This document shows positions 3,242 to 64,000 of a DNA stretch of 64,000 nucleotides, piece by piece. The notes beneath the pieces were generated by a model that saw only the letters and a program-made list of their open reading frames with translations, was not told the DNA's origin and ran no database searches. Both the position numbers and the translations under genes were made by a program. Numbering within the stretch: position 1 is the first letter of the stretch; the number at the start of each line of letters is the position of its first letter. This stretch comes from Aphanomyces cochlioides (Eukaryota; Oomycota; Saprolegniomycetes; Saprolegniales; Verrucalvaceae): NCBI GenBank assembly GCA_019828595.1, contig JAHQRK010000021.1:1470235-1534234 (forward strand). The letters are read 5' to 3'.

Positions 3242-3856
3242 ATGGATCATCGGTACGACGACTATGAAACGACCCGAGACTCCCGCAAAGGGCTCAATCC
3301 GCTCCTCCCAGCCAACAATATTGTCCACAGCAGCGCAGTTCTTAAAATGACGGGCATTTGGACCAAGACAATTGGATATGACCCATACGCACAAGAAGCT
3401 GATCGCCAAGAGAAAGAGAAAGCTGCTGCTGCATCAAGAGAGAAAGCTAAGGATATCCTTGCGATGGTCACACAGTCGAATCGGGGAGTAAGTTATTTAT
3501 CACGGATTCGTCTGATGGCGACAGTAGAACGTGGCCCGTGGAGCATGCAAAAAGTGCGGCATGATGGGACATCTTACGTTCCAATGCCGCAATTTTGAAA
3601 TGCACAAGAAAGAGGTAAAACTTTCCTTGCCTATGCTTGTATAACGCCTTTGTTTACTAAATAGTCTTCAGACGACGATAGCGACAGTGGTAGCAGCGAC
3701 GACAGCGACGATGATGACGACGAAGCATCCAAGAAGCGAAAACGGTCTTCAGAGAAAAAGAAAAAGTCCAAAAAGGACAAGAAGGACAAGAAGGACAAGA
3801 AGGCAAAGAAGAAGAAGGAAAAGAAGGAGAAAAAGAAGAAGCAGAGAAGGGATTAG
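3242..3856 (+). CDS. SREK1IP1-like zinc-knuckle splicing-associated protein
   Basis: Three exons join in frame: 3242-3487, 3528-3614 and 3665-3856, with introns of 40 nt (GTAAGT donor) and 50 nt, for 174 residues. Exon 2 encodes a CCHC knuckle, ACKKCGMMGHLTFQCRN, closely matching the signature of animal SREK1-interacting protein 1 (CKKCGxxGHLTFxCRN). Exon 3 encodes a Ser/Asp-rich acidic run followed by a Lys-rich tail (KKDKKDKKDKKAKKKK), also as in that family. The N-terminal 82 residues (YDDYETTRDSRKGLNPLLP..., then a Lys/Glu/Ala helix) are extra compared with the animal protein. It is probably a nuclear, spliceosome-linked RNA-binding protein; function is inferred from homology. Confidence 0.85.
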
Positions 3857-3895
3857 CTCAAGTACCCATTCGTGCGGTACTGGAATGTGTCATAT

Positions 3896-6836
3896 CTAGC
3901 CAAGGCATGATGATGAGCAATCGATGAGTTTTACGTACAATTTAGTGCGGACACTGCCGGCGCTTCGAGCGACAAGTGTGATTGCATGCTGGCGAACCCA
4001 TCCTTCATCTGACGCGTCCACGCACAGTCTGTCCTTCATGCGACGGCACGCATCGTACCCAGTATCCCCTGCAAAGCATGGAAATGGTGACTCGAGCGCA
4101 GTCACTCGAACCAGCGCGAGGAGCTGTGTCAGTGTCAAGACTTGCAACGGCAAAGGAACTTACCCGCGTCGCGTGTCGATGGAGCGCAACAAGGCCGTCA
4201 GCCAGGAGGCCTTGGAATGCCGTCATACCGGTTGGGCCCATAACTTGAATCATTTCATCTGTGAGTTTGAACGGCGCACGTTCAATCGAGAAGGAACCGC
4301 CCGGCGCCGTGCCAAAGCAAAAGCCGAAGTCAATGTGCATGACATAGCCGTCGGCGTGGAGCATCAGGTTGCCATTATGTCGGTCTTTGATCTGCCAGAC
4401 CACCATACCTCAGGACGAGCAGACACGTAGTCTTACCTGGAGGACATAGCAGAAGAGACTGTACGCCGCCATGCTTCGGATGAAGTTTTTCCTCGCGACC
4501 TACAATCAATTCCTTTACAGGTGTCGCCTCACGACGCTGACAAGACCTGAAAGTGCGGTGTGTCGGGTGTGCCATAGCGCTTGGTAAAGATGTCCATCAG
4601 TGTGGCAGTTGGTCCGCCAGTAGAGCTTAGAAAGTGCTTCTTGGCGTCAGAAATAGACATGGAATCGATCAGGACCTCCATGAGACCGCAGTCTTCACCA
4701 CAGCACATGATGCTACAACCTCAGTCAAGCACAAGTCGAGAAGACGAAGGGAATACGAGTAAGGGCGGAGCCAGAGTTGATCGCCACTGCCCATGCCTTC
4801 TTGCTGAAAGATTCCGTCAAAGAGGTGCATGAGCTGCATCACAAATACTTCTTGGCGCATGTCGTCGAAGCTCTTGGCTATCACAGGGACGACGTCCCAT
4901 CCAGCAACCTACAAGTCTTTCAGGAAACAACTCGGGAGTCAGGCGATCGTACGAGCTCTTTGTTGCGAGACCGCGCGGCACGTATCCTGTCTTTCTTGTC
5001 GAGGAAGCTCTCCACATGATGCGGTGTTGAGACGTTTGCAATGTCGTCGAATGACGCATCCAAGAGCGAGAGATGCGTCTCGACCATCGTTGGTTCTCGC
5101 GAAGGGCCTGACGATGAAGACACTGCGACGTCCAGTACGTCCTGCAGCAGTTGATCCGCAAAGTAGACGACGGGATTGAGTGGTGCAGGGCGTAAAGTCA
5201 TCATTGGCGGCAGCGAGACGCCTTCAAACCAAACCATCGTCGGTGCTCGTGCTTTGGTCGAGAAGACAGTGCCTTCGTCCAGGAGAACATCTAGAACTCG
5301 CACTGGAGTGTCGAGGGGAAGCACGGCTTTGGCTGGCATGGTCTCCCGCAGCCGCGCCAGGACGACCGGGAGATGTTTTTTGCGATCTCGAGGATCGTCG
5401 ATTAGTCGTTTGAAGTTTTGGCTCGCGACTACCAAGGAATGGACGAGATGCATTGTGTCTTCGAAAACAACGAGTGGATCTTCTACCTCTGGAACGCTGT
5501 CGGCCATGGCAAATTCCCTCAAGAGGGCTTCCATCTCGTCGGCGTCGACTTCAGTGATCATTTGGCCACGGAGACTTGCCGCCGACGAAACAATCGACGA
5601 GGAGGAGGAAGGCGTGGACGTGGGCAATGGATCCAAGTAGAACGCGCCACTTGAATATTCGGCTCGCATGCGGCTCTGAACGCGATCGATCTCTGACGAC
5701 GTCGTCGCAGCGAGCCATTCGCCAAATAGACCTGACTGTGACGAACCAAGTAGCACTTGCGATGCATTGAAGAGAGATTGGAGCTGCTGGTGATGTGCAC
5801 GTGTGAGCTGAGGACCATAGCACGTCTCGGCCATCTTGGCTGTTGCGACAGCACTGAGACTGAGCTGACAAGCGTAGACTTCGATAAGCACGATGGCAGC
5901 AAAGCGGGAGTTATCTTTGGCTCTAGCGGCATCGACTCGTGCAGCTTCGCATTCCCAAGCAGTCTTAATGGCTAGTTGAGTGGAACGGCGGCAAACCCCA
6001 GAGAGGAAGTGAAGATAGAAGAGCTGCATGTTGACAGACTGACAGCCGCTCCAGTAGATGATGCCCCAGTGGAGGATTTGTGGCCAGTAAAGCTCTACAT
6101 CCACGATACGGACGTCAGCATGGACCGACAATTGAGCAAGAAGCGTCACAATCATCATGGGGTTCTTCACATAAACGTACAAACCAAGGACAAGAGAGAA
6201 AGTATCGACTTCAGTGGTCATCAGCATCTTCTTTTGCAGTTTGAGCACTGGTTGACGCTCTGCCGAACGAAAGAGCCGCCAATGGCGCGTTTCCTTCCAT
6301 ATGCCGTATGGAGTTTGACTCAATTGCTCGACCATGTTCGTCCATGCTTCCAATTGCACATGAGCAGCTTCATAGCATGTATGGAAATCGACCTCTTCAG
6401 CAAGATGAGACGCCAGTGAAGTATCGTCGTTGGCTGAGGCAAAAGCAGCTTGCAACGCGTGCATCCATGCATCTCGTTCGGTTTTCGACTTGGTGTAACA
6501 CGTCCATCGCTCTCCCTTGATCGTTTCGACGAAGAATCGCTCACCGAGGAAATCTGACTCGTCCAGCGATGCAGCCATGCATACAATCGTTGCAATCGTG
6601 CCATCCGAGGTGTGCCACGTGAGAGATCCATCGCTCTGCAGCCAACACAACGTTCGATACGATGTGTCGTTGATTGAGAGATGCAGAGTCAGGTACGCCT
6701 TGTAAATGTACGACTGGACGGGCCTGGTCAAAGACGAGTCGTTCTTCCTCACTGTGGCATTGGTTTCCTCGACAAGGGGCGCAATCGTCGCTCTTCGACG
6801 ACTCGCCGACTTGTCGCGATCGAGGCTCATCACCAT
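3896..6836 (-). CDS. phosphatidylinositol 4-kinase with N-terminal PH domain
   Basis: Six exons join in phase: 6836-4953, 4908-4757, 4712-4547, 4499-4437, 4391-4164 and 4123-3896, with introns of 40-47 nt, for about 906 residues. Residues ~40-135 form a PH domain (SYIYKAYLTLHLSIND...RFFVETIKGERWTCYTKSKTERDAWMHALQAAF). A helical lipid-kinase region follows (~200-340). The catalytic end has VAGWDVVPVIAKSFDDMRQE, LWLRPYSIMCCGEDCGLMEVL, the loop IKDRHNGNLML, HIDFGF (DFG) and APFKLTDEMIQVMG, as in type III PI4K. The tail ALESPFPCF...TKLYVKLID closes the kinase fold. It makes PtdIns4P at Golgi or plasma membrane; the PH domain suggests lipid targeting. It is far shorter than PI4K-alpha. Confidence 0.9.
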
Positions 6837-48865: not shown

Positions 48866-50870
48866 CAGGGAACGACGCTGAATAGTGGACAAATCTTATT
48901 ATCATATTATAAGCCAATTAAATTTCTTGAAATTTTTTGGTTGCAAATCCGTTGGCCAAAATATTTGAAAATCAGATTAATTAAATTTTTGCCGCCGATA
49001 ACTCTCTAACCTGATCTCGTGGCATGTCTGATGTGCATCCCAATGTTTCCAAGCCACGTCCAAGACCAAACATCGCGCAAAAGCTCCAGGTCGTAGAGCT
49101 TGCCAAACAGCATGGCTTGAGCTCTGCTGTAGCCATCTGTGGTTACTCTCGAAGTGCGGTGCATTCGTGGCTATCGCAAGAGTCGAAGCTCATGGACTTC
49201 CTTGGGTCGAAGACGCGACGACGAAACACGGGCAATGCTGGTGCCAAACCAATCATCCCCGATCCTCATGAGCTTGCCATCTTTGTACGCGACCTTCGTC
49301 GCGAGGAGTTGCCTGTCACGAGTGGCCACATGATCAAATTCCTACGAATGAACCATAAGGAATGGCTTGAAGAGTACATGTCATCACGGAAGTCAGGATA
49401 CCAATCACTCTTGCGCTTGCTCCAGCGATTTGCCGACCGCTACGACTTTTCTCGTCAGCGTGTGTGTAAGCAGAAACATACCCAAGCCGACTTGACTGAG
49501 ACTCGCGTTGTATTTGGACGAAAATTCCATGATCAATACGGCCACATGGATCTCGACTGCATCTACAATGCCGATGAGACCGGCATATACTACGACATGT
49601 GCCCTACCACAATATGGGCTGTACGAGGTGGAGGCAGTTATGTTGCCAAAGGCGAGCGCCACCCGTACCGAATGACGGCAGTCCTGACCATCCGAGCGGA
49701 TGGTCTCAAACTTCCAATCTTGTTTATCATCCGTGGTGCGAACGGTGGGGTCATCGAAACCTCGGAGTTTGAGACATATCCTTGTGACCACGTCTACGCC
49801 ATGCAAGGGAGTGCGTGGATGGATGCGAGCGTCTGGCGGCGATATCTCCGCGAAGTGCTATACTACAAGATCGAGAATCCGTCAGTGTTGCTTGTCGACA
49901 ATTTTGACTCTCATGTCAGTGTTGAGAGCGAGAAGATAATTGGTGACGAGTTGGGCTCTGAGCTGTGTGCGTTGCCACCAAACAGTACCTCTTACTGCCA
50001 GCCACTGGACGTGTCCATCATGGGGCCTTTCAAACAGCATATGCGCGATTTGTGGGTTCTATCAGATGACAATGCGACAACTGCAAAAGAAAAACGAATG
50101 GTAATGATCCAGCGCGCTATTCAAGCTTGGGAAATGATATCCGAGGACGAAGTTCGTGCTAGCTTTGTGAAAGCACTGCCAAAGTAGTTTTGATATTCAT
50201 TTTTCATAATTCTTTCAATACATTTATACTTGAAATTTGTATGTAAATTTTGCGCATTCATGGACTTGAAGTGGTGACCTGTTGAAAATGACTGGTAGGC
50301 TATTTTGGCACTTGAATTTGATCTACGGGCAGTCGGAATACCGTCAGGGGGCAACCCCTAGTAGTAGGGTGAGCATTCGTGCGGCCCCGGGCCATATGTT
50401 CTTAGGATTGGGGGGGGGGTCCAGTAGGAGAGCCTATAGTGCGCGCCCTCACACTTCAGCCGCACCATATTCCAACCGTAACTTTTTTAATTTCAATGGA
50501 AATGTAATATTAAATACATATAATTTTATTTTTATACAACATTTCAATGGAAATGTAATATTAAATACATAAAATTTTATTTATATACAAATGTATGGTA
50601 ACGATCATTACCACCTCAGGTCGTATTTAAATATGCTTCCATCTATTCTTTCAAATGCAATACCCTGTTAAATTTGTTTCTTAATCCATGATGTCAAAGA
50701 AGAAAAATACTGTTCAAACAAATAACCTGTAGGAAATCAAATTTTACCCAATATCACCCTAATGCATTATTTTTCAACAATCAGCGGCACATGTTTCAAT
50801 TGGACAAACCGGAGGTATGGAATGGCCAATCAATCCAAAAGAATTGTCCACTATTCAGCGTCGTTCCCTG
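48866..50870 (+). mobile_element. pogo-like element nested in the hAT element
   Basis: A 27-bp perfect inverted repeat starts CAGGGAACGACGCTGAATAG at 48866 and ends at 50870, flanked by TA on both sides (48864-48865, 50871-50872). Removing it with one TA restores the hAT frame. Near its 3' end it carries a nine-G run (~50411) and a ~50-bp tandem duplication (50493-50590). Confidence 0.93.
49024..50187 (+). CDS. pogo/CENP-B-like transposase, apparently intact
   Basis: 387 codons without a stop. The N-terminus has a psq-type HTH (AQKLQVVELAKQHGLSSAVAICGYSRSAVHSWLSQ) and a CENP-B-type second DNA-binding region (TSGHMIKFLRMNHKEWLEEYMSS). The DDE_1 catalytic core has DCIYNADETGIYYDMCP (Asp), PSVLLVDNFDSHVSVESEK (Asp) and LPPNSTSYCQPLDVSIMGPFKQHMR (Asp). 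Intact frame, perfect TIRs and a clean TA duplication suggest recent activity. It is the youngest layer of the three-element nest. Confidence 0.88.
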   Translation: MSDVHPNVSKPRPRPNIAQKLQVVELAKQHGLSSAVAICGYSRSAVHSWLSQESKLMDFLGSKTRRRNTGNAGAKPIIPDPHELAIFVRDLRREELPVTSGHMIKFLRMNHKEWLEEYMSSRKSGYQSLLRLLQRFADRYDFSRQRVCKQKHTQADLTETRVVFGRKFHDQYGHMDLDCIYNADETGIYYDMCPTTIWAVRGGGSYVAKGERHPYRMTAVLTIRADGLKLPILFIIRGANGGVIETSEFETYPCDHVYAMQGSAWMDASVWRRYLREVLYYKIENPSVLLVDNFDSHVSVESEKIIGDELGSELCALPPNSTSYCQPLDVSIMGPFKQHMRDLWVLSDDNATTAKEKRMVMIQRAIQAWEMISEDEVRASFVKALPK

Positions 50871-53700
50871 TAATTGGATCGACCGGGTGTCTGAAGTCGA
50901 CAAAACAACTCTTGACAAGGCTTTCGCCAACATATTCTTTTGTACGGGGGTGCCCTTTCGACTTGCAGACAGTCCAGCATTCACAAAATTTATTCATTTG
51001 GCTCGACCTGCTTACACGCCTCCTTCTTCTAAAATGATTTCTGGTCCATTGCTGCATAGCGCACATTTTCAAATGACAACCCAAATCAAGCATCTTATCC
51101 AAGACCAGGCATATGTGAGTATAGTGTCTGATGGTTGGACATCCATGCTCAATGATCATTTTGTGAACTTTGTCGCTGTATTTCCTACAAAGTCAATCAA
51201 ACCAGTATTTTTGAAAGCAATCAGTACAAACGAGACAGCCCAAAATGGTATCAACATTGCAATTGAGTTGGAAAAAGTGATCTTGTCGATTGGTGTGGAG
51301 AAGGTAAGCTCTGTTGTTACTGACAACGCAGCCAACATGAAACATGCTTGGAAAATTCTTAAGTCAAAATACCCTGGTCTGATATGCAATGATTGTTCAG
51401 CCCATGCAATTAATTTACTCGTGAAGGATGTATGCAAATTGGATGAATTTGCCTCTACAATTGATCGTGCTCGTAAAATTACGTCCTTTGTAAAAGATCG
51501 AAGTGCATTGACCAAGCGCTTTGAGCGCATACAAAGAAATTTGTTTCATGATGGGGATCTTCGAACACAGCGTGGACTTTGTCCGATTGTTGTAACCCGT
51601 TGGTACACGCACTACAATTGTATCGTGCGAGTCCTGGAAATAGAATGGTTTTGACGCAACTTATCGGTACAAGTGTGTTTGCTGAAATAAAAGGGACATC
51701 GAATACTCGAGCTAAGAAAAAAGCTTTTGAGCAAGTGATACTAGATCCCACCTTTTGGACATCCCCCTCAACTATCGAAAGTATTTTGCGTCCAACGTGT
51801 GATGTAATTGCCTAATTGGAAGGCGATAAATGCTCCTTGTCAGATGTCTACAGACTGTTGCTGAATTTGCGGTCACTTTGGCAAGACAACTCAAATCTGA
51901 CAAGACGTTTGATGGAGCGATGGGATTTCCTTCACACGGAATCAATGGGTTTCGCATTTTACTTGGATCCTCAAACAAAAGCCGGAGAGGGTATGGTTGA
52001 AGATGACCTATACGACATCACATACCAGCTCCAAGAGTACATTTTGAACAAGAAATGCATCACAACTAATCAGTCTATCGTGCAACTGGAAATTGCTGAA
52101 TTCGTTGATGCCATGAAAAATCCTACAGAGAAAGCTCGGACGTACATCCAAAATTGTGCTTCACCAATGCATTATTGGAACCAAGTAGGTTCGACAAAGT
52201 TTCCCAATCTATTTGAGGTCGCTAGAATTGTATTTAGCATACCGACATCCCAAGCTGCATCTGAACGTGTATGGAGTATATACGACTTTATTCTGTCCAA
52301 GAGGCGCAATCGTTTAGGTCCCGAAAAAGTGTCCCAGCTGGTTCAATTGTACTGCAACGCAGATATCTCGACCGAATGCAACTTTGTGAATGTACTCATG
52401 GGGTTAGAAAGTGATGTCGGTGAAAGCGAAAGTGAAGAAGAAACAAAAGAATGAATGAGTTTGTAGTGAAATTTATAACTAATCCGATGTATTTTCATAT
52501 TGTCTAGAGCAAAAATCTTAAAGCCTAGTCTACCAAGGCAAAGAATAATCTTTGTAATCCCCCAACAAGAACACCGTTGACCTGTTGCCCTTTTCCCTGG
52601 ATAGGACTGTGCCACAGAAGAACTACATAAGTAGCGGTAGGGGTGTAGGATGGTGTAGTTGACGGCCTTGATAGCCCCCCGCAAAGCGAGTTTAAGACGA
52701 AGACATGATGCTTGTAGAGCAAAATTGAAAATGAGGTATTGGATTGTGTAGCAGAGTTTAATGACAAGCCTGATTTCTGTGAGAAGCATGGAGCATTGAC
52801 AGTGTTTTTACTGCAAAGCGGCTACTCTAAATTCAGGACAGTACACCATTCTGTTCGAATCATGAGCCTATGACACGTTTTTGACTGCAAAAGTCTATGT
52901 TATACGTATTTTGAGAGGTAACATTCACTGTACACTTGACAGTACAGTGAATTGTATACTTTGTATTGCAAACATATTGTAAAAATTTACAGTACATATT
53001 GTGGCGAACCCTACTGTGAATAGAATTTAAATAGCCTATATCCAAGACATTAAAGTCTGGACAATTTGGAGCTTGATTTACCACATAAATATTCATAAAA
53101 CCCTCTGAGCAAAGCAGCTCAGCGGTAATACAGCGATGGGGGCTTGCGTTATCCTGTTGGATAAACACTTTCTTGTCCCTGTAAGGGCGAGGAAACTTCG
53201 CAAGAATGGCTGGGGCAACTTTTTCCAAAATCAACGCCTTGTAGACAAGAGCAACGACGCTCTCAACAATTGGCCAAATTCCAATCTTAACGTCAAATTC
53301 ACGCCACAAATGATGATCGTAGCGGCTTTGCAACAGCAGCCAGGAACATAATCTTGGTGATGTGGCTCTTGTGCTTCACGGAACGAAGAGAAATTTCTTC
53401 TTCATCATAAACTTAGAACTTTCTCTTAACCTTGGTCATGAAGAACCACTTCTCGTCAAGATGCACATAGTCGTGCATATTGCTGAAGATGTGTTTTCCA
53501 TATGACCCAGGTTGGAGAAAGCTCAGCGCAAACATCATGCATTCTTCCTTGTTTGTCTCCGAATGGGCTGGTTTGATGTAACTTGATCGGGTCTTCAATC
53601 TCTTTTCTTCCTTCATTTGGTTAACAATTGTTGTCTTGGGGATGCCACTTGCAGCGGCAAGGGAGCGCAAAAGTTTGGCGGTTGACATGATTTACTTGCT

Positions 53701-54803: not shown

Positions 54804-56640
54804 AAATAGTGTGATGCTTTTGCAAATAATACCTAGAGCAAATGTTTACCATTTCATTGCATTTAATCATAATGTCGGCGACCTAGAAAGTTAACTGCAT
54901 TAACTTTGAACATAGGAGAAATTGTTTACCATTTCATTGTAGTTAATAAATTGCACAGTGTCGACGGCATAGGAGAACTAGACAGTAAATAAAATTAGCA
55001 TTGAAAATTGAAGACGAAATATTACCATTGAGATGCATTGTAATGTGTTAATGTACCATGCGGAACCATCGCAGGATTTTCTCCACTTTTTACAGTGTGG
55101 GAGGATTTTTGATGTCAAATTCTGTACTAATTAGCCCCCACTAAAGAAGTCGCTTTTGAACTCGGGCAATGGTGGTTAATCACACTACGCGCAACACAAC
55201 AACGAAAAGACAAAAATAAGAAAAAAATATTTTTGGATCTTAGCCTCCCAGCGACTCAAGCCGATGCCTCCCCACGGTTGTCGTTCGCGGAGCCGTCACT
55301 GATGTCGCTGTCGCTGCCATGGCGGTCGCTGCCACTGCTGTTGCTGTCGCTGCCACTCGCTGCCACTGCCGTCACCACCGTTCTTGCCTGCTTGCAGCGC
55401 TGTTGCCGCCATCACCGCTCTTCCCGTGCTGACGCCGCTGTTCTCATAAACTCAACCCGTCGTCGAGAAGCGGCCATTCTTCATTTTTCAATTTGCCTCG
55501 CAGAGCACACATGGATTTAGTTCGAGCGCACAACTTTACTTCGAATTTCTCGTTCTCGGCCCACAGGCCGTAAAAAGCAATTCTAAATAGCTCACAAAAG
55601 CCATCCTTGTTGATGGTATCGAAGCAAATACTGCCATTTCCCATCCGGAGTACTTCTGTCAAAATATAATTAATTTTATCATACCATCAATATTTCAAGC
55701 AAGTTGTTTTCTTTTTATTGAAGTCAGTATTATTATTAGATTCTTTAGCTATGCGTAGTGTAAGTTAACTCTCTTAATGCTATCTCTAAAGCGAGTTTTT
55801 AAACCAATTGATAGCTCGCTGACACAGCAAAGCCAATTGTAATTCATCCTAGCACATGCGGCGGCTCGTGCCCATGGAGACACCAATCACACCTTGAGCT
55901 CTTACTTACGATACCTAGGTTATTATCATAATATGATAGCTCACTGGCGTGCCAGCTTTTAGTTTTAACCTTGAGGCTGGCTGCTAACGATAAGATATCA
56001 CCATATTAGCGATATAATCATTCGCATGAATGTTAGAACAGCTCAACAGAGACTTAACCACAGACTGGATCAATGGGAATCACTTTCATTTCATCAAATG
56101 ACCACATGACTTTAAAGACGGCAGTTACTTCCTCATCAGAATAGCGGGCATGAACATAAACCTATAAAAGCTACCAAAAGCAAAAATATTCCAAATTTGA
56201 GCTAATGCGTTAAAATGCATAATTTTGAATTTCGCTAGTAGGTGAGAATTCATATAATTGAAGGCACGGGTGACAAAAGTCCAATTTGTCTGAAGCATCG
56301 GTGCTCTACGAATCTGAAAAGCTCACCCCACTCATGGCAACCAGATGTCCTCTACCATCGTTTCCTGAATATTAGAAGTACTTTGTGTGTAGGTGTGTGT
56401 GTATTTCCACACACATAACTTATTGTGTCCAGTTACCATACTGGGCATGCAAAAGCTCACGTCTGTTGATTCAGTCAGAAACTGGTAAGGAAAAGCAAAA
56501 AGAGCTCAGTTAAGGGCTCAATTAGAAGTGAGTTATGGACGAGTTTATATCCTTCTGAAACACCGTTAAATCGATGCCGTTGAGCCGTTGAAACGAATCA
56601 TGGCGCTCCTCCAAACCAACCCCACTGGAGTGTACAATAC
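54804..56640. other. spacer with a GCTGCCACTG-rich tract
   Basis: No gene recognised. 55295-55400 is a GC-rich low-complexity run of GCTGCCACTG/GTCGCTGTCGCTG units; the open frame across it (55233-55520) is Leu/Ala-rich and probably an artefact of the repeat. Confidence 0.45.
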
Positions 56641-56805
56641 AATTGTAGTTATCCGGTTAATTATCCGGATAACAATAGAGAAAAGTTCCCACGGATATCC
56701 GGATAGTAATAAGGAAGTTTCCATGGATTTCCGGATATTCACAGGGAAGTTTCCATGGATTTCCGGATATTCACAGGGATGTTTCCATGGATATCCACAG
56801 ACCAA
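56641..56805 (+). repeat. ~34-bp tandem repeats with palindromic cores
   Basis: Three successive units of GGAAGTTTCCATGGATTTCC(GGATATTCACA) type, with palindromic CCATGG and TATCCGGATA cores; TTATCCGGTTAATTATCCGG precedes them. The TATCCGGATA motif recurs at 60511-60521 next to the distal retroelement junction. Confidence 0.7.
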
Positions 56806-56946
56806 ACTGAAATTGAATGCAACGAAAACTGTCATGTATTAGATGTAGGTTTTACGAATAGCTAACACTAAACCTTTAAAATACATACTACCTGTTGCGT
56901 TTTCAGGGAAGTACCAGCTGCGCCACATGAACTGATCCAGGTAGGA

Positions 56947-57427
56947 TTGCAAGTCGTCAGTTTGAACTCCTCTCATTCCTTCAAGTACTGCTTCACGCGT
57001 ACTTCCCACACCCCTTCAATTGACTATGTGTGGGGGTTTGGGGGTGCGGGGTGGCGGTGCCGTGCCGAAGCCGAAGACGAGACAAAAACTTCCCGAAGGG
57101 GTGAATTGAACATTAATCTCACTAGTCCTTTCGATAGTTTCTTCATCAGCGGGATCGTTTCTATCCAGCAGAGGGTTGTGGGTAGCCTATCCTTTACTAT
57201 ATACTACTGGTTTGTATTGGGTTGGATGTTGACGATGTGTTTGGCTGTTGTAAACTTGAAGTTTACGGTTTGTTGAAATGTCGTAAACATATTCAATTGG
57301 TGTCGTGACGCGTCGTTGTCATTGAATCCAGTGGGTGCACTGTGACACATGATTGCGTAATCTGATTGCGTAATCGTGTTGAGGGTACTGCCCAGTACTC
57401 AGAGTGTATGAGTAAGGCTTGAGGGGT
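56947..57427 (-). other. 5' relic of a retroelement plus telomere-like tracts
   Basis: On the minus strand, CTGATGAAGAAACTATCGAA (near 57150) followed by AATTCACCCCTT (57112-57101) matches the leader of the downstream Penelope-like element at 60440-60248, so this is the 5' piece of a third copy. Telomere-like runs flank it (GGGGGTTTGGGGG near 57031, GGGGTTTAGGGG at 57423-57434). Confidence 0.55.
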
Positions 57428-59394
57428 TTAGGGGTTTCCTCCCCCACGCCTGTTCTCAAGGAGAACTTGAGCGGGCGTGGGGGATATGTCCACACTTAAT
57501 GAGGTGGGACATAGTTTCTGCTTTAGGTTTCGTGGTTTGAGCATGCAGAGAGTTATCTTCTCAATCTGGAGCTCTTTCAACACGGGTTCAAACAGGTGAG
57601 CCTGAATGATACGTTTTAAATCGTTATTTTTAAATCCGTTGGGATCGTATGGGATTTTAAAAATGATTTGTGAACGGCGTATTCGTGGGGTGGTGAGCGT
57701 CGGGGCTTGAAGACCTTTGTGAAAGAGTTCTAAAAGCGTCCGGCGTCGGTAGCCCCGTTGTTGTAGTCGGAGAAAGAGAAGGTTGATGAAATTTTGAAAG
57801 TCTTTGTTATCAGGATTTTGCTTTCGATATTTCTTAAGTAACCCGTACACAAGACCTTTAAGGACTCCAGGCGGGTGAGCACTGGAAGCCGGGATGTACA
57901 AGTGTAGATTCAGACGTTTTTGATGTGTCTTATGGGTATATTTATCGTCCTTTCTTAGGATCCAAAGGTCTAAGTACGCAATCTCATGTGGGTCAGTGAG
58001 GAAGGTAAAGTGAAGTTTGGATTCTCGACGGAAAGTTGCTAAGAACTGTTGTATTATATAGGGATGTTGGTTTTTATTTTTAATAATAATAAAACCGTCA
58101 TCGATATAACGTTTATAATACTTAAATGCATCTCGAAATTGTGGTAGTAAGACTTGGTCTTCAAGAAGGCCCAAGTAAAGGGATGCAAAAGTAGGAGCAA
58201 CTGGAGTTCCCATGGCGGTACCTGAAGTTTGGTGCCAAAATGTGTCACCAAATTTAAAGATATTTGATCCAAGAAGGAGTTTGAGTCCATGTAGGATGCC
58301 ATTCTTCCACGTGTTGCCTTGAAGCAAGGCCTCGATGGAGACCAGGGCGCGGTTTATGTCTAGAGACGTATATAGTGCGCTTACATCAAATGTTACCATT
58401 AAGTCATTAGGTTCAGATGTTATCTTCGCAAGTTCTTCGATAAGTGTATCGGAGTCGTGGAGGTGGGAGGAAGTGTGTTTCAGATATGGTTGAAGGTGGA
58501 AGTCCAGCCATTTCGAAAGTCCTTCAAATACTGAATTACTGTTAGAGACGATAGGTCTAAGCTCCAACGTTGGTTTGTGTATTTTCGCGAGAGCATAGAA
58601 TCTATTCAAGATCTTCTTATCGAGTTCAAAACCGATAATTCGTGTGTGTTTCCAATTGGGGTGTGTTCCATATTGGTGTGAAAGATCAAATAGGAATTGT
58701 CTTAATCGAGTCTTAAGTTGTTTCAGTATGGCATCGTCTGAGGTCATGGTTATCCGTGTATAGGTTGTTGTACATAGATGTGAGAGACAGAATTGTATGT
58801 ACTGTCGTCTGTCCATGATCGCAGGTCCTAAGTTCTTATCGGTTGAAAGAACATGTAGGTCAGTTCTGTCTTTCATAAGCTTATATAGGAGACGTGGTTC
58901 CTCACTCATGTTAGATTTCCTGCCTATAGGAGGTGATGCAATGGCGATGGAGGAACGCATGGCTAGAAGTGGTGTCTCGACGAGGGTCTGATCCGCAATT
59001 TTCGGTTGAAAAGAGGGATTTGGGCAAAATTTTTTTTTGGGGGCTCCGACCCTGAAGGCGCGTTTCTTAAAGGCATGCGATTTCCAGCATTTTCCATATT
59101 TCCGGATATCTGGTTGTATCCGGATCTTCCACGGTCGAACTGCCATCGTAGGCGTAAGGCGCGTTCAAAATACGGATAATGTTGAAGTATTTTATCCGTA
59201 GTGACACGTGGGGGGGTAGGGCAGAAGGATAGGCCCAAACGGAGGAGTCGCTTGAGGTTGGGCGGAATCACAGTTGTTGGGGGAGCAAGGTTGTGGAAGG
59301 CGAGATTGTTGGGTTCGTCGTCGACAACAGAAATATAGCGGGAAACGAATATATTGGCAGCATTAGAGAGAACTGAGGCCCTCGGGTCGATCAT
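57428..59394 (-). pseudogene. Penelope-like reverse transcriptase (element 1), one frameshift
   Basis: Starts MIDPRASVLSNAANIFVSRY at 59394 and switches frame near a run of nine T (59030-59038). The rest (to 57428) carries LHVLSTDKNLGPAIM, FYALAKIHKPTLELRPIVS, LMVTFDVSALYTSLD (motif A Asp), GTAMGTPVAPTFASLYLGLLED (motif B), YYKRYIDDGFIII (catalytic YIDD-type motif C), KLHFTFLTDPHEIAYLDLWI and HPPGVLKGLVYGLLKKYRKQNP. These are Penelope-like signatures. It ends ~60 residues later with no GIY-YIG domain. The frameshift could be real or a homopolymer sequencing error. ORF1 ends 11 nt upstream. Confidence 0.85.
57441..57483 (-). other. 3'-end hairpin of element 1
   Basis: CCCCCACGCC (57441-57450) pairs with GGCGTGGGGG (57474-57483), 10 bp; inside, GTTCTC/GAGAAC or CTCAAG/CTTGAG can pair alternatively. 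It covers the end of the RT frame. Confidence 0.75.
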
Positions 59395-59405
59395 TGTTTG
59401 ACGAT

Positions 59406-60224
59406 CTATTGCTGCTTCGCTTGGTTTTTCTTCTTGGTTTCTTGGTTGGCGTTCTTGTTTGGTTGCTTGGCGTTGGCGTTCTTGCTTGCTTGCTTGGCGG
59501 GTGGCTTCCTTGGTGGCTTGGAGTCGTTGGCGGGCGGTCGTGCGCGGGCTTTTCCTCCATCGCCACTTTTCTTGGTGGTAGGGGACTCCGATTTCGATTT
59601 GTTGCCAGATCCCGCCCCTTGGTTGGATCTGGCACCGCCTTTTAAAGCCACGCGGAGAGAGGCAACCTCCTTTCGCAGCGCAGCTGTAGTCTTTCCTATC
59701 TCCCGGGCGACAAGTTCAGCGACCAGTTGGTCGTTCGGCGCGTTGACTTCCATTTCGGCGGCGGCGGCGCGAGCGGCAGCAAGTTTGGCGGCTTTGTCTT
59801 CCTTGTACATGCGTGCATGGAGGCGATCGGCGTGGATGGCGTGGGCCTGGGAGAGAAGGAAAGAAACAGACATATCAAAATTGTTGTTTAAAATTAAATT
59901 GATATCCAGCCCTCCGGCGGCCAGACCCCCAGGCCTCCCCGGGTTGGCGTTCGCGGTTGCAGTTGCAGTCGAGGGGGTTTGGGGGATCGGCGGGATCGCT
60001 GAGCTTGCTGTAGAACATAGAGTGAAATACCTTTGGAGCTCAGCGATCGCATCTGGCAGGCATGCATCGCGTTGGCGCTCAAGCGCCAGGAGTTCGGCGG
60101 CTGCCGTGTCGCGGACGATGGCGTGTTGTGCGGCGTCGCGGGCTGCAAGCTCGGCAGTGAATCGTGCTTGGAGGTCGGCGGGTTTGGGGGTTTGGGGGTT
60201 AGCAGGGAGAGGCGACGGGACCAC
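59406..60224 (-). CDS. ORF1 of Penelope-like element 1
   Basis: Open frame of ~272 codons; no ATG near the start (the frame opens on GTG at 60224 and is open upstream), so the true start is unknown. N-terminal residues NPQTPKP are encoded by telomere-like CCCCCAAA units. Then an Ala/Arg-rich helix, the conserved block NANPGRPGGLAAGGLDINLI, a coiled coil (ADRLHARMYKEDKAAKLAAARAAAAEMEVNAPNDQLVAELVAREIGKTTAALRKEVASLR) and a Lys/Pro-rich basic tail. Resembles ORF1 of element 2 in layout. Probably a nucleic-acid-binding, self-associating protein; role inferred. Confidence 0.72.
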   Translation of the reverse strand: MVPSPLPANPQTPKPADLQARFTAELAARDAAQHAIVRDTAAAELLALERQRDACLPDAIAELQRYFTLCSTASSAIPPIPQTPSTATATANANPGRPGGLAAGGLDINLILNNNFDMSVSFLLSQAHAIHADRLHARMYKEDKAAKLAAARAAAAEMEVNAPNDQLVAELVAREIGKTTAALRKEVASLRVALKGGARSNQGAGSGNKSKSESPTTKKSGDGGKARARPPANDSKPPRKPPAKQASKNANAKQPNKNANQETKKKNQAKQQ

Positions 60225-60261
60225 GCGAGCGAAGCGAGCTTTGTCACAAAGGGGTGAATTA

Positions 60262-60360
60262 AAAATTAACGCTACAACTACGGAGCGAAGCGACCACGCG
60301 CTTTAGCGCGTCACGCCCGAAGGGCGTCCGGAGGGTCTGGGAGGCGGAGCCTCCCAGGGC
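60262..60360 (-). other. cluster of three GC hairpins in the element 1 leader
   Basis: ACGCGCTTTAGCGCGT (60295-60310), CGCCCGAAGGGCG (60314-60326) and CTGGGAGGCGGAGCCTCCCAG (60336-60356, 9-bp stem) follow one another within 65 bp. Confidence 0.65.
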
Positions 60361-60450
60361 TCGTTTTAATTGGTTGTAGGCACTCGTAATCTAATTTCAT
60401 TGGTCCTTTCGTTTGCCTTCTTCAGTGTGAGTTATGTCGCTGATTGTGCA

Positions 60451-60658
60451 AGCATGAAGTGACTGAGGGGATCAGTTAGTCAGTTCAGAAGCTTGCCAGC
60501 TTTATCCGGATATCCGGATAAGGGGGATTTGGGGGCCCCGGGGGGATTTCGGGGGCCCCTGGGGGGATTTCCATGGGGGAAGTTCCTTGGGGAGGAAGTT
60601 CCATGGAAGTTTGGGGTTTAGGGGTTTCGGGGTTGGGGGTTTCGGGTGTTGGTGGTTT
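60451..60658. other. G-rich junction between the two retroelements
   Basis: Contains TATCCGGATATCCGGATAAG, GGGGATTT-type runs and, next to element 2, GGGGTTTAGGGGTTTCGGGG and GGGGGTTTCGGG: degenerate TTTNGGGG telomere-like units. Confidence 0.7.
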
Positions 60659-60708
60659 CACCCCGACACCTGTACTAGTTGTCGAGTAGACTAGCAGGTG
60701 TCGGGGTG
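60659..60708 (-). other. 3'-end hairpin of element 2
   Basis: CACCCCGACACCTG (60659-60672) pairs with CAGGTGTCGGGGTG (60695-60708), 14 bp, with inner CTAGT/ACTAG. Two positions differ from element 1 with both partners changed. Confidence 0.78.
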
Positions 60709-62651
60709 GTGTCTAGTTTGAGTCGAGATGGACTAAGTTTAGACTTTAAGGTTGGTGGTTTGAGATAGCATATTGCTATGCGATCTACCCCGATTTGTCG
60801 TAGACCTTCTTTATATGAATCAAAGTATAATAGTCTCTTCAATTCGTGAGAAGAAGGCCCGTTTGGATCATACGGAACTTTATAGTATATGACTTTCTCA
60901 TGTGCTTTTGGTTTCGTGACTGCGTCAAGTGCCTGACGAAACAGTCGTAAGAGAAGTTCCTTTCGGTAGCCTCTATACATAAGGCGAGTCAAAAGCTTGT
61001 TAATAAAGTCTTTAAAGTCACTATCGCGAGGGTTTTGTTTGCGATATTTCTTTACAAGTCCGTATAGGAGTCCTTTGAGTACACCAGGAGGATGTGCACT
61101 TGTTGCAGGGATGTATAAATACAGGTTAAGAGCCTTTTGATGGGTTCTATGTGTGTACTTTGATCCGTCTTTGATCACCCATAAATCCAGGAAGGGGATA
61201 GTGTTTGAATCCAGTGTATGGGTGAAACTTAGCTTCGATTCTCGTCGGAATAGTGCAAAGAGGTGATTTGCAAGAAACCGATTGGTTGAGAAATTACGAA
61301 CGATGAAGAATCCATCGTCAATGTATCGAGTGTAGTACTTCAGTTGGGAAGTAAACATGGGAAGTAGTACTGTTTCCTCAAAATAAGCTAGATACAGCGA
61401 AGCGTACGTGGGTGCAACAGGTGTTCCCATGGCTGTACCGTTTATCTGAAGCCAGATTGTGTCGCCGAATGTGAAATAGTTGGACGTGAGAAGTAACTGC
61501 AGTCCATTTACAATGGCGTCACACCATGGATCGTCTCTTACAATGTACTGTATGATATGTATTGCTCGATCTGTAGGGATGTTTGTATACAGAGAGGTTA
61601 CATCGTACGTGACAAGCATATCATCATCATCCGCATCCAACGTCGAAATGACATCGATAAAGGAGTCGGAATCTCTGAGATATGATTGTGTTTGCAAGAG
61701 GTATGGTTTCAGTTTGAAGTCCAACCACTTAGACAAGCCTTCAAATATAGTGTATGAGTTGGACACTATAGGCCTTAGTTGAAGGGTAGGCTTGTGGACT
61801 TTAGCCAAAGCATAGAATTTATTGATATCCTTAAATTCCAGTTCATGTTGGATGATTTTTGTGTCTTTCCAATCATGTCGATGACTGTAGTCGTCGCGAA
61901 TCGTTTGGTAGAAGCGTCTGACGCGCGTGCGTAACAAACGAACGACTGCATTGAGTGGTGATAGGGATCTACTGTATGTTGTAGTGTCTCGTAAGTGTGT
62001 GAGACACCACTGGATGTATTGTTCTCTGGTCATAATAGCTGGACCAAGATTTTTATCCGTGGATAATACATGTAGATTGGACGTTCGAATTAGTCTAAGG
62101 AGAGCTTTGTGTTCACGGTTCAAGTTGGACTTGTTTCGTGAAGGTAGCACGATAGATCTAAGAGCTAATCGAGTTGTGTCTAAAGCCTCTTCCAGTATGC
62201 GGGACGCTGGAGGTGGCTGAAAAGAAGCGTTCCGAACGTAGACCGGAGATGGTTTCCATTCGCGTTTCCTCTTATTAGACGAATTGGCAAGAGTTTCTGT
62301 CGCATGCATATTTTTTGGACCGGTGTCGGTCACTCGCGGGACAAGATGCATATTTTTTCTAGAGTTAGCATCTGACCTTTCGAAAAGATATTTTAGTCGA
62401 ATGGTTCGTTCAAAGTAATCCATATGTTCCCCCACATCAATGGGTGTGATGTGACGTGGGGTGGGACAGAATTTCAGGCCAAGGCCAAGTAAACGTTGTA
62501 AAGCAGCAGGGACCATCGTTTCCGATGGTGTCAGGTCATGGTAGGCAAGGTTGTAGGGTTCCAAGTCGACAGCACCGACATAGCGACACGCAAATATATT
62601 AACTGCATTACGTATCGTCGACGCTGAAGGGTCAATCGCATTGTTGACCAA
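60675..62651 (-). CDS. Penelope-like reverse transcriptase (element 2), intact frame
   Basis: 658 codons with no stop. Motifs: LHVLSTDKNLGPAIMTREQYIQWCLTHL, FYALAKVHKPTLQLRPIVSNSYTIFEGLSKWLDF, MLVTYDVTSLYTNIPTDRAI (A), GTAMGTPVAPTYASLYLAYFEE (B), YYTRYIDDGFFIV (C), KLSFTHTLDSNTIPFLDLWVI and HPPGVLKGLLYGLVKKYRKQNP. It stops ~110 residues after the last block with no GIY-YIG endonuclease. The frame has no near ATG (opens on TTG at 62651; element 1 has ATG nearby) and lies in the -1 frame relative to ORF1, whose stop is 2 nt upstream. It may be made by frameshifting or reinitiation. Confidence 0.88.
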   Translation of the reverse strand: MVNNAIDPSASTIRNAVNIFACRYVGAVDLEPYNLAYHDLTPSETMVPAALQRLLGLGLKFCPTPRHITPIDVGEHMDYFERTIRLKYLFERSDANSRKNMHLVPRVTDTGPKNMHATETLANSSNKRKREWKPSPVYVRNASFQPPPASRILEEALDTTRLALRSIVLPSRNKSNLNREHKALLRLIRTSNLHVLSTDKNLGPAIMTREQYIQWCLTHLRDTTTYSRSLSPLNAVVRLLRTRVRRFYQTIRDDYSHRHDWKDTKIIQHELEFKDINKFYALAKVHKPTLQLRPIVSNSYTIFEGLSKWLDFKLKPYLLQTQSYLRDSDSFIDVISTLDADDDDMLVTYDVTSLYTNIPTDRAIHIIQYIVRDDPWCDAIVNGLQLLLTSNYFTFGDTIWLQINGTAMGTPVAPTYASLYLAYFEETVLLPMFTSQLKYYTRYIDDGFFIVRNFSTNRFLANHLFALFRRESKLSFTHTLDSNTIPFLDLWVIKDGSKYTHRTHQKALNLYLYIPATSAHPPGVLKGLLYGLVKKYRKQNPRDSDFKDFINKLLTRLMYRGYRKELLLRLFRQALDAVTKPKAHEKVIYYKVPYDPNGPSSHELKRLLYFDSYKEGLRQIGVDRIAICYLKPPTLKSKLSPSRLKLDTTPTPASLLDN

Positions 62652-62653
62652 GA

Positions 62654-63571
62654 CTAATTGTCTTTCTTGGCGTGTTTCTTCTGGCTCGGTTGAGCCGGCT
62701 GTTTTTTCTTGGGTGCGCCGCCTGCTGCGCCTTTCGGCGTTTCGTTGCGTTTCTTTGGCTTGCCGTTGCTTCCGCCTTGCGGCGGACCTCGGGCTTTTCC
62801 TCCACCTTCGTTTCGGGGAGTTGGCGTCTTTCCATTCTTCCCAATCGGTTTGCCAGGCCGATTGGGCGGGTCGTTTAAAGAGCGTCGATCAACTTTGTCC
62901 TTTAACGCAGAACGTAACAAGTTTACTTCTTTACGTAAAGCGCTAACATTCTTGGAAATTTCGCGTTTGACTAGTTGTCCCACGAGGATGTCGTTGGGAG
63001 TGTCAACTTCCATGGCTTCGGCGGCGGCTCGGGCGGCGGCAACTTCGGCTTTCTTCATTTCGCGAGCTTGGCTTTCGAGGACGTGCTTGTAGCAAGCGTT
63101 GTTGAGCGCATCATTTAAAAAGGACACAGAAAGGGAAAGATCTTGTTGAAAATTTTGTTTTATTAAATTGATATCTAGCCCTCCAGCGGCCAGAACCCCA
63201 GGCCTCCCCGGGTTGGCGTTCGCGGCAGCGCTGTCGAGGGATGAGCTACAAGATTCAAAATACCTTTTGAGTTGGTCCACATAGGACGCACGCATTTGTG
63301 GCAGGGTGGCTTCAAGGGCGGCGAGCTCGGCTCGAGCGGATGCCTTGATTGTTGCGTGGAGGGCGGCTTCGTTGGCGGCGAGTTGGCTCGCAAACTGAGT
63401 CTTGAGTGCGGTGGCCTGGGCTGGGTTCACGGCTTCCAGCATGGCAGATGTTTTCAGGTCCATCTTGGTGGCGATGGATCTTGGCGCACGGGCGTCGAGG
63501 CGGGCGATGGCGTTTCGCTTGGCTTCGATTCGACGCAGGAGGGCAGAGAACTCTCGGACGCAGTTGGTCAC
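62654..63571 (-). CDS. ORF1 of Penelope-like element 2
   Basis: About 305 codons; the frame opens on GTG and stays open upstream into the terminal repeat, so the start is undefined (first ATG at residue 37). Features: helical Ala/Arg-rich N-terminus, the block NANPGRPGVLAAGGLDINLI, a coiled coil (KHVLESQAREMKKAEVAAARAAAEAMEVDTPNDILVGQLVKREISKNVSALRKEVNLLRSALKD) and a basic Pro/Gly/Lys tail ending KKKQPAQPSQKKHAKKDN. The same architecture as element 1 with low identity outside the central block. Confidence 0.72.
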   Translation of the reverse strand: MTNCVREFSALLRRIEAKRNAIARLDARAPRSIATKMDLKTSAMLEAVNPAQATALKTQFASQLAANEAALHATIKASARAELAALEATLPQMRASYVDQLKRYFESCSSSLDSAAANANPGRPGVLAAGGLDINLIKQNFQQDLSLSVSFLNDALNNACYKHVLESQAREMKKAEVAAARAAAEAMEVDTPNDILVGQLVKREISKNVSALRKEVNLLRSALKDKVDRRSLNDPPNRPGKPIGKNGKTPTPRNEGGGKARGPPQGGSNGKPKKRNETPKGAAGGAPKKKQPAQPSQKKHAKKDN

Positions 63572-63610
63572 GAGGTTGACGGCTTGGGGCGGCGGGCTGC
63601 GAGCCTGGGC

Positions 63611-64000
63611 GGTTTGGGGGTTTGGGGGTTTGGGGGTTTGGGGGTTTGGGGGTTTGGGGGTTTGGGGGTTTGGGGGTTTGGGGGTTTGGGGGGGGGTTTG
63701 GGGGTTTGGGGGTTTGGGGGTTTGGGGGTTTGGGGGTTTGGGGGTTTGGGGGTTTGGGGGTTTGGGGGTTTGGGGGTTGGGGGGGTTTGGGGGTTTGGGG
63801 GTTTGGGGGTTTGGGGGTTTGGGGGTTTGGGGTTTTTGGGGGTTTGGGGGTTTGGGGGTTTGGGGGTTTGGGGTTTGGGGGTTTGGGGGTTTGGGGGTTT
63901 GGGGGTTTGGGGGTTTGGGGGTTTGGGGGTTTGGGGGTTTGGGGGTTTGGGGGTTTGGGGGTTTGGGGGTTTGGGGGTTTGGGGGTTTGGGGGTTTGGGG
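63611..64000 (+). repeat. terminal TTTGGGGG array (telomere-like)
   Basis: About 48 head-to-tail copies of the 8-mer TTTGGGGG with a few length variants (extra G runs near 63690 and 63780, one TTTTTGGGGG near 63833), running to the window edge. The G-rich strand reads 5'->3' toward the right end, the polarity of a right-hand chromosome terminus. The usual oomycete unit is TTTAGGG, so this would be an unusual telomere or a telomere-derived satellite. Confidence 0.85.

What the first reader, a model, noticed from the sequence alone, without database searches (positions are those of the whole stretch)
56947..64000. Tandem telomere-attached Penelope-like elements lacking an endonuclease
Two reverse-transcriptase elements lie head to tail, both on the minus strand. 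Their 3' ends face the centromere and touch TTTNGGGG-type DNA; the outermost 5' end touches the terminal array. An RT that primes on a chromosome's 3' G-strand overhang would produce exactly this polarity. Penelope-like RT motifs are clear and GIY-YIG is absent. Endonuclease-deficient Penelope-like elements at telomeres are known (for example Athena in rotifers, Coprina in fungi, with reports from stramenopiles). What may be new is the paired ORF1/ORF2 architecture described here.
Basis: partly seen in the sequence, partly recalled or inferred. Interest (0 to 1): 0.9.

Follow-up and report, generated by a model that had tools for sequence, protein, structure and literature searches.

The report
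Tip-adding jumping genes relayed with telomerase
At 29 of the 32 telomere-bearing contig ends of this water-mould genome (likely the pea-root parasite Aphanomyces euteiches), a jumping gene that encodes a reverse transcriptase predicted to fold like telomerase, and no detectable DNA-cutting domain, sits just inside the telomere; it likely attaches to broken chromosome ends that telomerase has only begun to mend and would later cap.

Summary
Two endonuclease-less Penelope-like elements (PLEs; outer family A, inner family B, about 51% RT identity) lie head to tail at a real contig end, 3' ends inward, under a TTTGGGGG array. Of 188 contig ends, 32 carry the array, and 29 arrays sit directly on a family A copy. 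All 40 RT matches lie within 14 kb of such ends, 39 in the expected orientation. No GIY-YIG domain was found. Two-ORF EN-less PLEs are already in print.

New here is the junction anatomy. 38 of 38 external 3' termini follow at most 21 nt of exact telomere repeat, on broken chromosomal DNA or truncated PLE copies. Two further copies, both lacking their 3' unit, do sit on long arrays (360-372 nt). Internal copies of the repeat that family B interrupts continue past the breakpoint. Truncated 5' ends are capped at telomere microhomologies. Three junctions carry CCCTACTGG before TTTGGGGG; the only other genomic match is one internal locus with a 13-nt template, a candidate telomerase RNA. Two of the three lie between a break and a PLE. 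So telomerase likely starts the repair, the PLE takes over, and telomerase caps it.

The parts
56602..57034 (.). Chromosomal dispersed repeat interrupted by the inner element (broken end); internal copies continue past 57034
   Evidence: four of four fetched internal copies (C18, C12, C5, C28) run on after TGTGTGGG
57032..57044 (+). 3' junction tract of family B: 13 nt in telomere register (GGGGGTTTGGGGG), of which the first GGG also belongs to the target
   Evidence: coordinates; empty sites
57045..57439 (-). Family B 3' non-coding region; one match in the genome (itself)
57440..57484 (-). Hairpin beside the end of family B RT ORF
   Evidence: 57425-57495 folds at -33.4 kcal/mol, z -4.5
57428..59146 (-). 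Family B RT ORF, main part (572 aa)
   Evidence: RVT_1 E 1.2e-7
58963..59394 (-). Family B N-terminal RT part in another frame (ORF2 is split)
   Evidence: one search shows the match in two pieces
59406..60179 (-). Family B ORF1, 5'-truncated (open frame runs on into telomere repeat)
60180..60198 (+). 19-nt telomeric tract between truncated family B and the family A 3' end
60199..60659 (-). Family A 3' unit (pseudo-LTR, about 460 bp); found at 30 of 32 array-bearing ends and beside one interstitial array
60609..60659 (+). Degenerate telomere-like G-rich tract at the 5' border of the pseudo-LTR; 12 of 29 outermost copies end in it or at its edge
60659..60712 (-). Hairpin spanning the RT stop codon and bordering the pseudo-LTR
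   Evidence: 60650-60725 folds at -33.1 kcal/mol, z -6.2
60675..62651 (-). Family A RT ORF (658 aa, no endonuclease domain found); first start listed is TTG
62654..63571 (-). Family A ORF1 (305 aa, predicted helical with a disordered C-terminal tail; listed start GTG)
63572..63614 (-). Truncated 5' leader of family A, joined to the array with 4 nt of microhomology
63611..64000 (+). Terminal (TTTGGGGG)n array, G strand running to the contig end

Best explanation
These are endonuclease-less Penelope-like elements that sit at array-bearing contig ends, almost always in one orientation, and they likely add themselves to broken or uncapped chromosome ends that telomerase has just begun to heal. Inferred sequence of events: (1) a chromosome end loses its telomere or breaks; the interrupted repeat beside the inner element shows such a site directly. 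(2) Telomerase likely anneals the broken 3' end to its RNA and lays down one or two TTTGGGGG repeats; two PLE junctions carry nine bases that match the DNA beside the template of a candidate telomerase RNA. (3) The element's RT, predicted to fold like telomerase reverse transcriptase, would use this short 3' end as primer and copy the element RNA from its 3' end, so no endonuclease is needed. (4) The cDNA end, whether complete, stopped early or later eroded, is capped with roughly 300-400 nt of repeats, likely by telomerase at short telomere-like matches. A telomere-like G-rich tract next to a hairpin in the element is a frequent capping site and probably acts as a ready-made telomere seed. 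Shown: positions, polarity, tract lengths, interrupted target, microhomology, and the shared nine bases. Inferred: which enzyme did each step, the RNA intermediate, and the order in time.
Against: Two outward copies that lack their 3' unit sit on long arrays: C3L (372 nt, joined in mid-body) and C24R (360 nt, joined inside the G-rich tract); they fit overhang priming or recombination, not the relay. Allowing two mismatches, tracts reach 32 nt (20R) and 26 nt (4L), and unbroken G/T runs before the 3' end reach 45, 44 and 30 nt at 28R, 4L and 67L, where the target is degenerate G-rich sequence. Only 2 of 38 PLE 3' junctions carry the strong telomerase-RNA signature; a third has 4 nt, which 38 tries could give by chance. 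The null samples only about 1,370 flank positions. In full-length copies the 5' pseudo-LTR/body joint itself reads TTACCCCCAAACCC in the RNA sense, so element RNA could supply one repeat. The candidate telomerase RNA rests on a 17-mer and a plausible template; fold z -1.6, no Rfam match, and a 69-aa frame overlaps it. One of the two TERT domain matches has a stop inside (introns not considered). Foldseek's first hit is a bacterial G2L4 RT, with TERT second, and a profile search of PDB sequences at E up to 1 found bacterial RTs but no TERT. One RT fragment is inverted (C56:6040-7410). Three truncation points recur (45, 912, 2654), which could reflect recombination. No RNA, protein or activity data.
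Confidence: 0.55

Rival explanations
1. Terminon-like direct attachment: the element RNA itself carries a short CCCCCAAA tail or internal C-rich stretch that pairs with the broken or exposed end, so its own RT makes the one or two repeats and telomerase acts only at the 5' end.
For: The pseudo-LTR/body joint of full-length copies encodes one repeat (7 internal joints); many short tracts are 8-11 nt, matching that joint's 11; C24R is joined to a long array inside its G-rich tract; Terminons are described as carrying reverse-complement telomeric repeats at their 3' end (PMC6431247, passages).
Against: Tracts of 13-21 nt exceed the 11 nt available in that joint; bases absent from the reference element copy stand between break and repeats at two junctions.
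Confidence: 0.28
2. Attachment to ordinary telomeres, mostly ones eroded to a few repeats: the element joins old telomeres without any break or healing step.
For: All exact tracts are short and in one phase; two copies without a 3' unit sit on arrays of 360-372 nt; the published model includes deprotected telomeres (PMC3846280, passages).
Against: Targets include an interrupted dispersed repeat and truncated PLE bodies; erosion should leave some longer exact tracts before intact 3' termini, and none of 38 exceeds 21 nt.
Confidence: 0.13
3. Spread by recombination: one or few insertions were copied to other ends by break-induced replication, so positions and polarity reflect recombination and not repeated retrotransposition.
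For: Bodies are at least 99% identical to the C45R copy in 18 of 22 long matches; three truncation points recur at different ends.
Against: The 3' flanks differ at nearly all ends read; recurrent truncations sit at telomere microhomologies of 3-6 nt.
Confidence: 0.12
4. Assembly artefact: element and array joined by misassembly of contig tips.
For: One small contig (C86) duplicates end C36L with other DNA at the tip of its array, which may be chimeric.
Against: The same architecture recurs at 29 ends with different flanks and graded truncations.
Confidence: 0.02

Closest known systems
Athena and other EN-deficient PLEs of rotifers, fungi and protists (incl. Coprina)
   Same: No GIY-YIG domain, telomere location, telomeric repeats added to truncated 5' ends, published priming at deprotected telomeres or double-strand breaks (PMC3846280, passages); two ORFs in EN-less PLEs, head-to-tail copies in rotifers (PMC6431247, passages)
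   Different: Here the host is an oomycete with TTTGGGGG repeats; the compact element has a pseudo-LTR with a G-rich seed and hairpin, and short tracts, two with a telomerase-RNA flank, at the 3' junction; RT phylogeny against named members not done
Terminons (giant Athena-bearing retroelements)
   Same: Telomeric, EN-deficient, telomere-like sequence at the element end (PMC6431247, passages)
   Different: The longest copy used here is about 3.9 kb, not up to 40 kb; no hammerhead ribozyme reached E 1 in Rfam
Penelope/Poseidon elements with pseudo-LTRs
   Same: Pseudo-LTRs, tandem arrangement, RT starting internal to the template RNA's 3' end in vitro for the anole element (PMC11167929, abstract and part 1 of the main text)
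   Different: Those carry GIY-YIG; internal insertion is recalled
HeT-A, TART, TAHRE of Drosophila (recalled, apart from abstracts in search listings)
   Same: Retroelements added to chromosome ends, 3' end inward
   Different: Non-LTR elements in a species without telomerase; here TERT domain matches exist and arrays cap the elements
Telomerase chromosome healing and telomerase-RNA copying at breaks
   Same: Short microhomology at addition sites (recalled); telomerase-RNA retrotranscription at breaks is the topic of PMC2246262 (title and start of abstract in search listings)
   Different: Here the healing is followed by a retroelement

Membership tests
Penelope-like elements (PLE) | PLE-type RT motifs (e.g. 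TDKNLGP, YIDDGF) and kinship to TERT | tested here: met
Penelope-like elements (PLE) | Pseudo-LTRs and tandem or partial-tandem copies | tested here: met
   5' pseudo-LTR copies in C28R, C45R, C4R, C24R (and truncated in C1L, C3L); head-to-tail series
EN-deficient telomere-associated PLE (Athena/Coprina type) | No GIY-YIG endonuclease in element or relatives | tested here: met
   0 of 5 window ORFs (E up to 1) and 0 of 75 aligned RTs (E up to 0.01); no PF01541 in the Pfam lists of the 120 listed hits of 639 (accession recalled)
EN-deficient telomere-associated PLE (Athena/Coprina type) | Copies at chromosome ends, 3' end inward, telomeric repeats at the 5' end | tested here: met
EN-deficient telomere-associated PLE (Athena/Coprina type) | RT falls in the Athena or Coprina clade | not testable with these tools
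   No named Athena or Coprina protein could be obtained; tree of relatives only
Terminon | Hammerhead ribozyme followed by reverse-complement telomeric repeats at the 3' end | tested here: not met
   No hammerhead at E up to 1 in 56500-64000; a degenerate one is not excluded
Terminon | Giant size and accessory enzyme ORFs | tested here: not met
   Longest copy used 3927 nt with two ORFs
HeT-A/TART-like non-LTR telomere retrotransposon | Replaces telomerase arrays | tested here: not met
   Arrays at 32 ends and TERT RNA-binding domain matches at C34

The most novel reading that the evidence does not exclude
A two-enzyme relay at chromosome breaks: telomerase starts de novo healing from its own RNA, and after one or two repeats the growing strand is handed to the PLE, either by the PLE RT using the nascent telomere as primer or by the TERT-like PLE RT copying telomerase RNA and then switching template to its own RNA. 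The retroelement would thus parasitise the telomerase healing reaction itself, and its G-rich tract would return the end to telomerase.
Probability: 0.42. Interest if true: 0.88.

Novelty: new variant of a known kind. Interest (0 to 1): 0.7.

Why it matters
PLEs and telomerase share an ancestor (PMC3846280, abstract passage), and EN-less PLEs at telomeres hint at how one could become the other. Here a single assembly holds many near-identical copies with readable junctions at both ends, so the attachment mechanism can be tested. If the relay is right, telomerase and a retroelement co-operate on the same broken end, and chromosome tips of this plant parasite are a record of breakage and repair. 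It also gives a TTTGGGGG telomere (other oomycetes in print: TTTAGGG, PMC11540230 and PMC9997571, passages) and a candidate telomerase RNA gene.

Tried and rejected
Rejected: hammerhead ribozyme at the element end (none at E up to 1). Rejected: a shared exact 5' boundary of solo pseudo-LTRs at position 460; one search shows the ends scatter through a 50-nt G-rich tract. Rejected: a third element family at C24R; it is 96% identical in DNA with many stops. Rejected: C86 as an internal insertion; its 3' flank is identical to C36L and it has its own array. Papers by Gladyshev and Arkhipova 2007, Arkhipova 2017 and Craig 2021 are not held; what is said of them comes from other papers or recall. The Pfam copy did not name PF26215/PF28514 seen. 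Ten paper searches (listings capped, e.g. 15 of 680) listed no title or abstract start on PLEs at oomycete telomeres, TTTGGGGG telomeres or Aphanomyces telomeres; two Aphanomyces genome papers hold neither 'telomer' nor 'Penelope' in the main text. This holds for the open library only. Dropped rows: in the microhomology test, end 26R (variant repeats) and the 12 ends in the G-rich tract; in the 3' junction count, 7 internal pseudo-LTR/body joints and the two copies without a 3' unit; three further junctions (C56 16 kb in, C8L, C86) fit but are not in the 38. One of the 13 microhomologies (39L, 13 nt) is inflated by telomere-like element sequence.
Full report
What was checked. The window is the last 64 kb of contig C14 in a 76,215,617-base, 94-contig genome; the contig lengths collected sum to exactly that number. 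The named relatives are Aphanomyces proteins: ORF1 is 100% identical over 88% of its length to an A. euteiches protein and has a distant A. invadans relative, and an A. astaci RT fragment groups with the inner element. The host is therefore likely A. euteiches, but no record name was shown.

Window anatomy. The outer element (family A) occupies 60199-63614 on the minus strand: ORF1 (305 aa), RT ORF (658 aa), hairpin, pseudo-LTR. The inner element (family B) occupies 57045-60179. Its ORF1 is truncated and its RT ORF is split between frames. The two RTs share 50.7% identity and the two ORF1 proteins 45%. The terminal TTTGGGGG array begins at 63611 and shares four bases with the element.

Genome survey. 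All 188 contig ends were read for at least 150 bases; 32 end in the array and the other 156 show at most 6% coverage by the motif. The family A 3' unit gives 55 matches, all in one polarity relative to the nearest contig end, at 30 of the 32 array-bearing ends and on one 31-kb contig; 6 of the 55 are only short G-rich tract matches, and 40 of 46 candidates were scored. The RT gives 40 matches (pieces, two of them family B), all 38 candidates scored, starting within 13,658 bases of 19 such ends, 39 in the expected polarity. The exception is an inverted fragment at C56:6040-7410. At 29 of 32 ends the array sits directly on a family A copy (at 26R by way of variant repeats); at C6R, C34L and C8L it sits on other DNA, C8L having an older copy 4.9 kb inside. 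The C86 locus is a second copy of end C36L, with foreign DNA at the tip of its array.

3' junctions. Of 45 located 3' termini, 7 are the constant joint between 5' pseudo-LTR and body. The other 38 have 2-21 nt of exact telomere-phase sequence, none more; with two mismatches allowed the longest are 32 nt (20R) and 26 nt (4L), and G/T-only runs of 45, 44 and 30 nt precede the 3' end at 28R, 4L and 67L, where the target is degenerate G-rich sequence. Pure G/T terminal runs are 287-681 nt at 31 of 32 ends; the 32nd, 24R, is interrupted by variants. 25 of the 38 join DNA with no detectable PLE match and 13 join PLE or G-rich sequence. For the window's inner element the target is a dispersed repeat, and four of four fetched internal copies continue past its breakpoint: the element was added where the chromosome had broken.

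Exceptions. Two long arrays lie between copies: 372 nt at C3L and 360 nt at C24R. Each is followed outward by a family A copy that lacks its 3' unit; the C3L copy starts in mid-body at reference position 1284, the C24R copy inside the G-rich tract. These two fit priming on a long overhang through an internal telomere-like stretch, or recombination, and do not fit the relay.

5' junctions. 12 of 29 outermost copies end in the 50-nt G-rich tract or at its edge (11R runs five bases past it; the 24R tract is diverged). Of the other 17, one (26R) passes into variant repeats; the remaining 16 represent 13 distinct sites, every one with at least 2 nt of telomere microhomology, mean 4.7 against 0.84 expected, 0 of 20,000 resamples as high (one value, 39L, is inflated). 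This is the pattern expected of telomere addition by telomerase (recalled), and two matches to the TERT RNA-binding domain lie at C34:1444186-1444694, one with a stop inside.

Telomerase RNA signature. Three junctions (11R array base; 39L and 45L between the broken end and a PLE) contain CCCTACTGG before TTTGGGGG. The complementary 17-mer occurs four times in the genome: those three and one internal locus, C26:478673-478689; the reversed-pattern control has none. There the sequence reads AAACCCCCAAACCAGTAGGG, a 13-nt template of 1.6 repeats, in a stretch between frames of 100 aa or more, though a 69-aa frame overlaps it. By arithmetic a chance 17-mer match in both strands of 76 Mb is expected about 0.01 times. 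In 2 of 38 PLE junctions 7 bases specific to this flank are present; no draw from about 1,370 flank positions gave 5 or more; one more junction has 4. The economical reading is that telomerase laid the first repeats and the PLE joined afterwards. The locus is a candidate only: fold z -1.6, no Rfam match.

Known and new. Published work already describes EN-deficient PLEs that prime at deprotected telomeres or breaks and are capped at truncated 5' ends (PMC3846280, passages), two-ORF EN-less PLEs, and Terminons with reverse-complement telomeric repeats beside a hammerhead (PMC6431247, passages). The element here is a compact oomycete variant without a detected hammerhead, occupying nearly every assembled telomere, with junctions that tie attachment to the start of telomerase healing. 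The relay itself is inferred.

Noticed in passing
L262:1498-1517 (G000:C26:478673-478689): Candidate telomerase RNA gene: AAACCCCCAAACCAGTAGGG, a 1.6-repeat template for TTTGGGGG, whose 3' flank is copied at three chromosome-end junctions.
   Followed up: partly
C3 left end, 2455-2827 from the tip; C24 right end, 3709-4069 from the tip: Two long interstitial arrays (372 and 360 nt) between head-to-tail copies; the outward copy lacks its 3' unit in both.
   Followed up: partly
32 contig ends of G000: Telomere repeat is TTTGGGGG, whereas two other oomycete genome papers use or report TTTAGGG.
   Followed up: partly
C18 right end (L173) and C26 right end (L177): Homogeneous runs of variant telomere repeats (TTTGGTGG and TGTTTGGG) next to the element; origin unexplained, perhaps slippage or copying of a variant template.
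   Followed up: no
C56:6040-7410 (L018): The only inverted RT fragment, at the 3' end of a normally oriented copy; a fold-back rearrangement or assembly artefact.
   Followed up: no
C86:1500-2200 (L250, L255): Interstitial array plus pseudo-LTR identical at its 3' flank to end C36L, with unrelated DNA at the array tip: fusion or chimeric contig.
   Followed up: partly
C1L/C3L, C7R/C45L, C4L/C17L: The same 5' truncation points (45, 912, 2654) recur, with different 3' flanks for C7R/C45L and C4L/C17L; hotspots of telomere addition or recombination between ends.
   Followed up: partly
family A 3' termini: The four bases between the repeat tract and CAGGGAG vary (TAAG 32, TAAT 4, TTAG 3, TAGT 3, others 3), always starting with T.
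   Followed up: partly
window 49024-50187 and 50791-51654: Transposase-like ORFs (DDE_1; DUF659) in the subtelomere.
   Followed up: no
window 56683-56796: Tandem 32-bp repeat with TATCCGGATA-type palindromes in the flanking chromosomal DNA; similar CCGGATA words occur in the family A pseudo-LTR near 60505.
   Followed up: no
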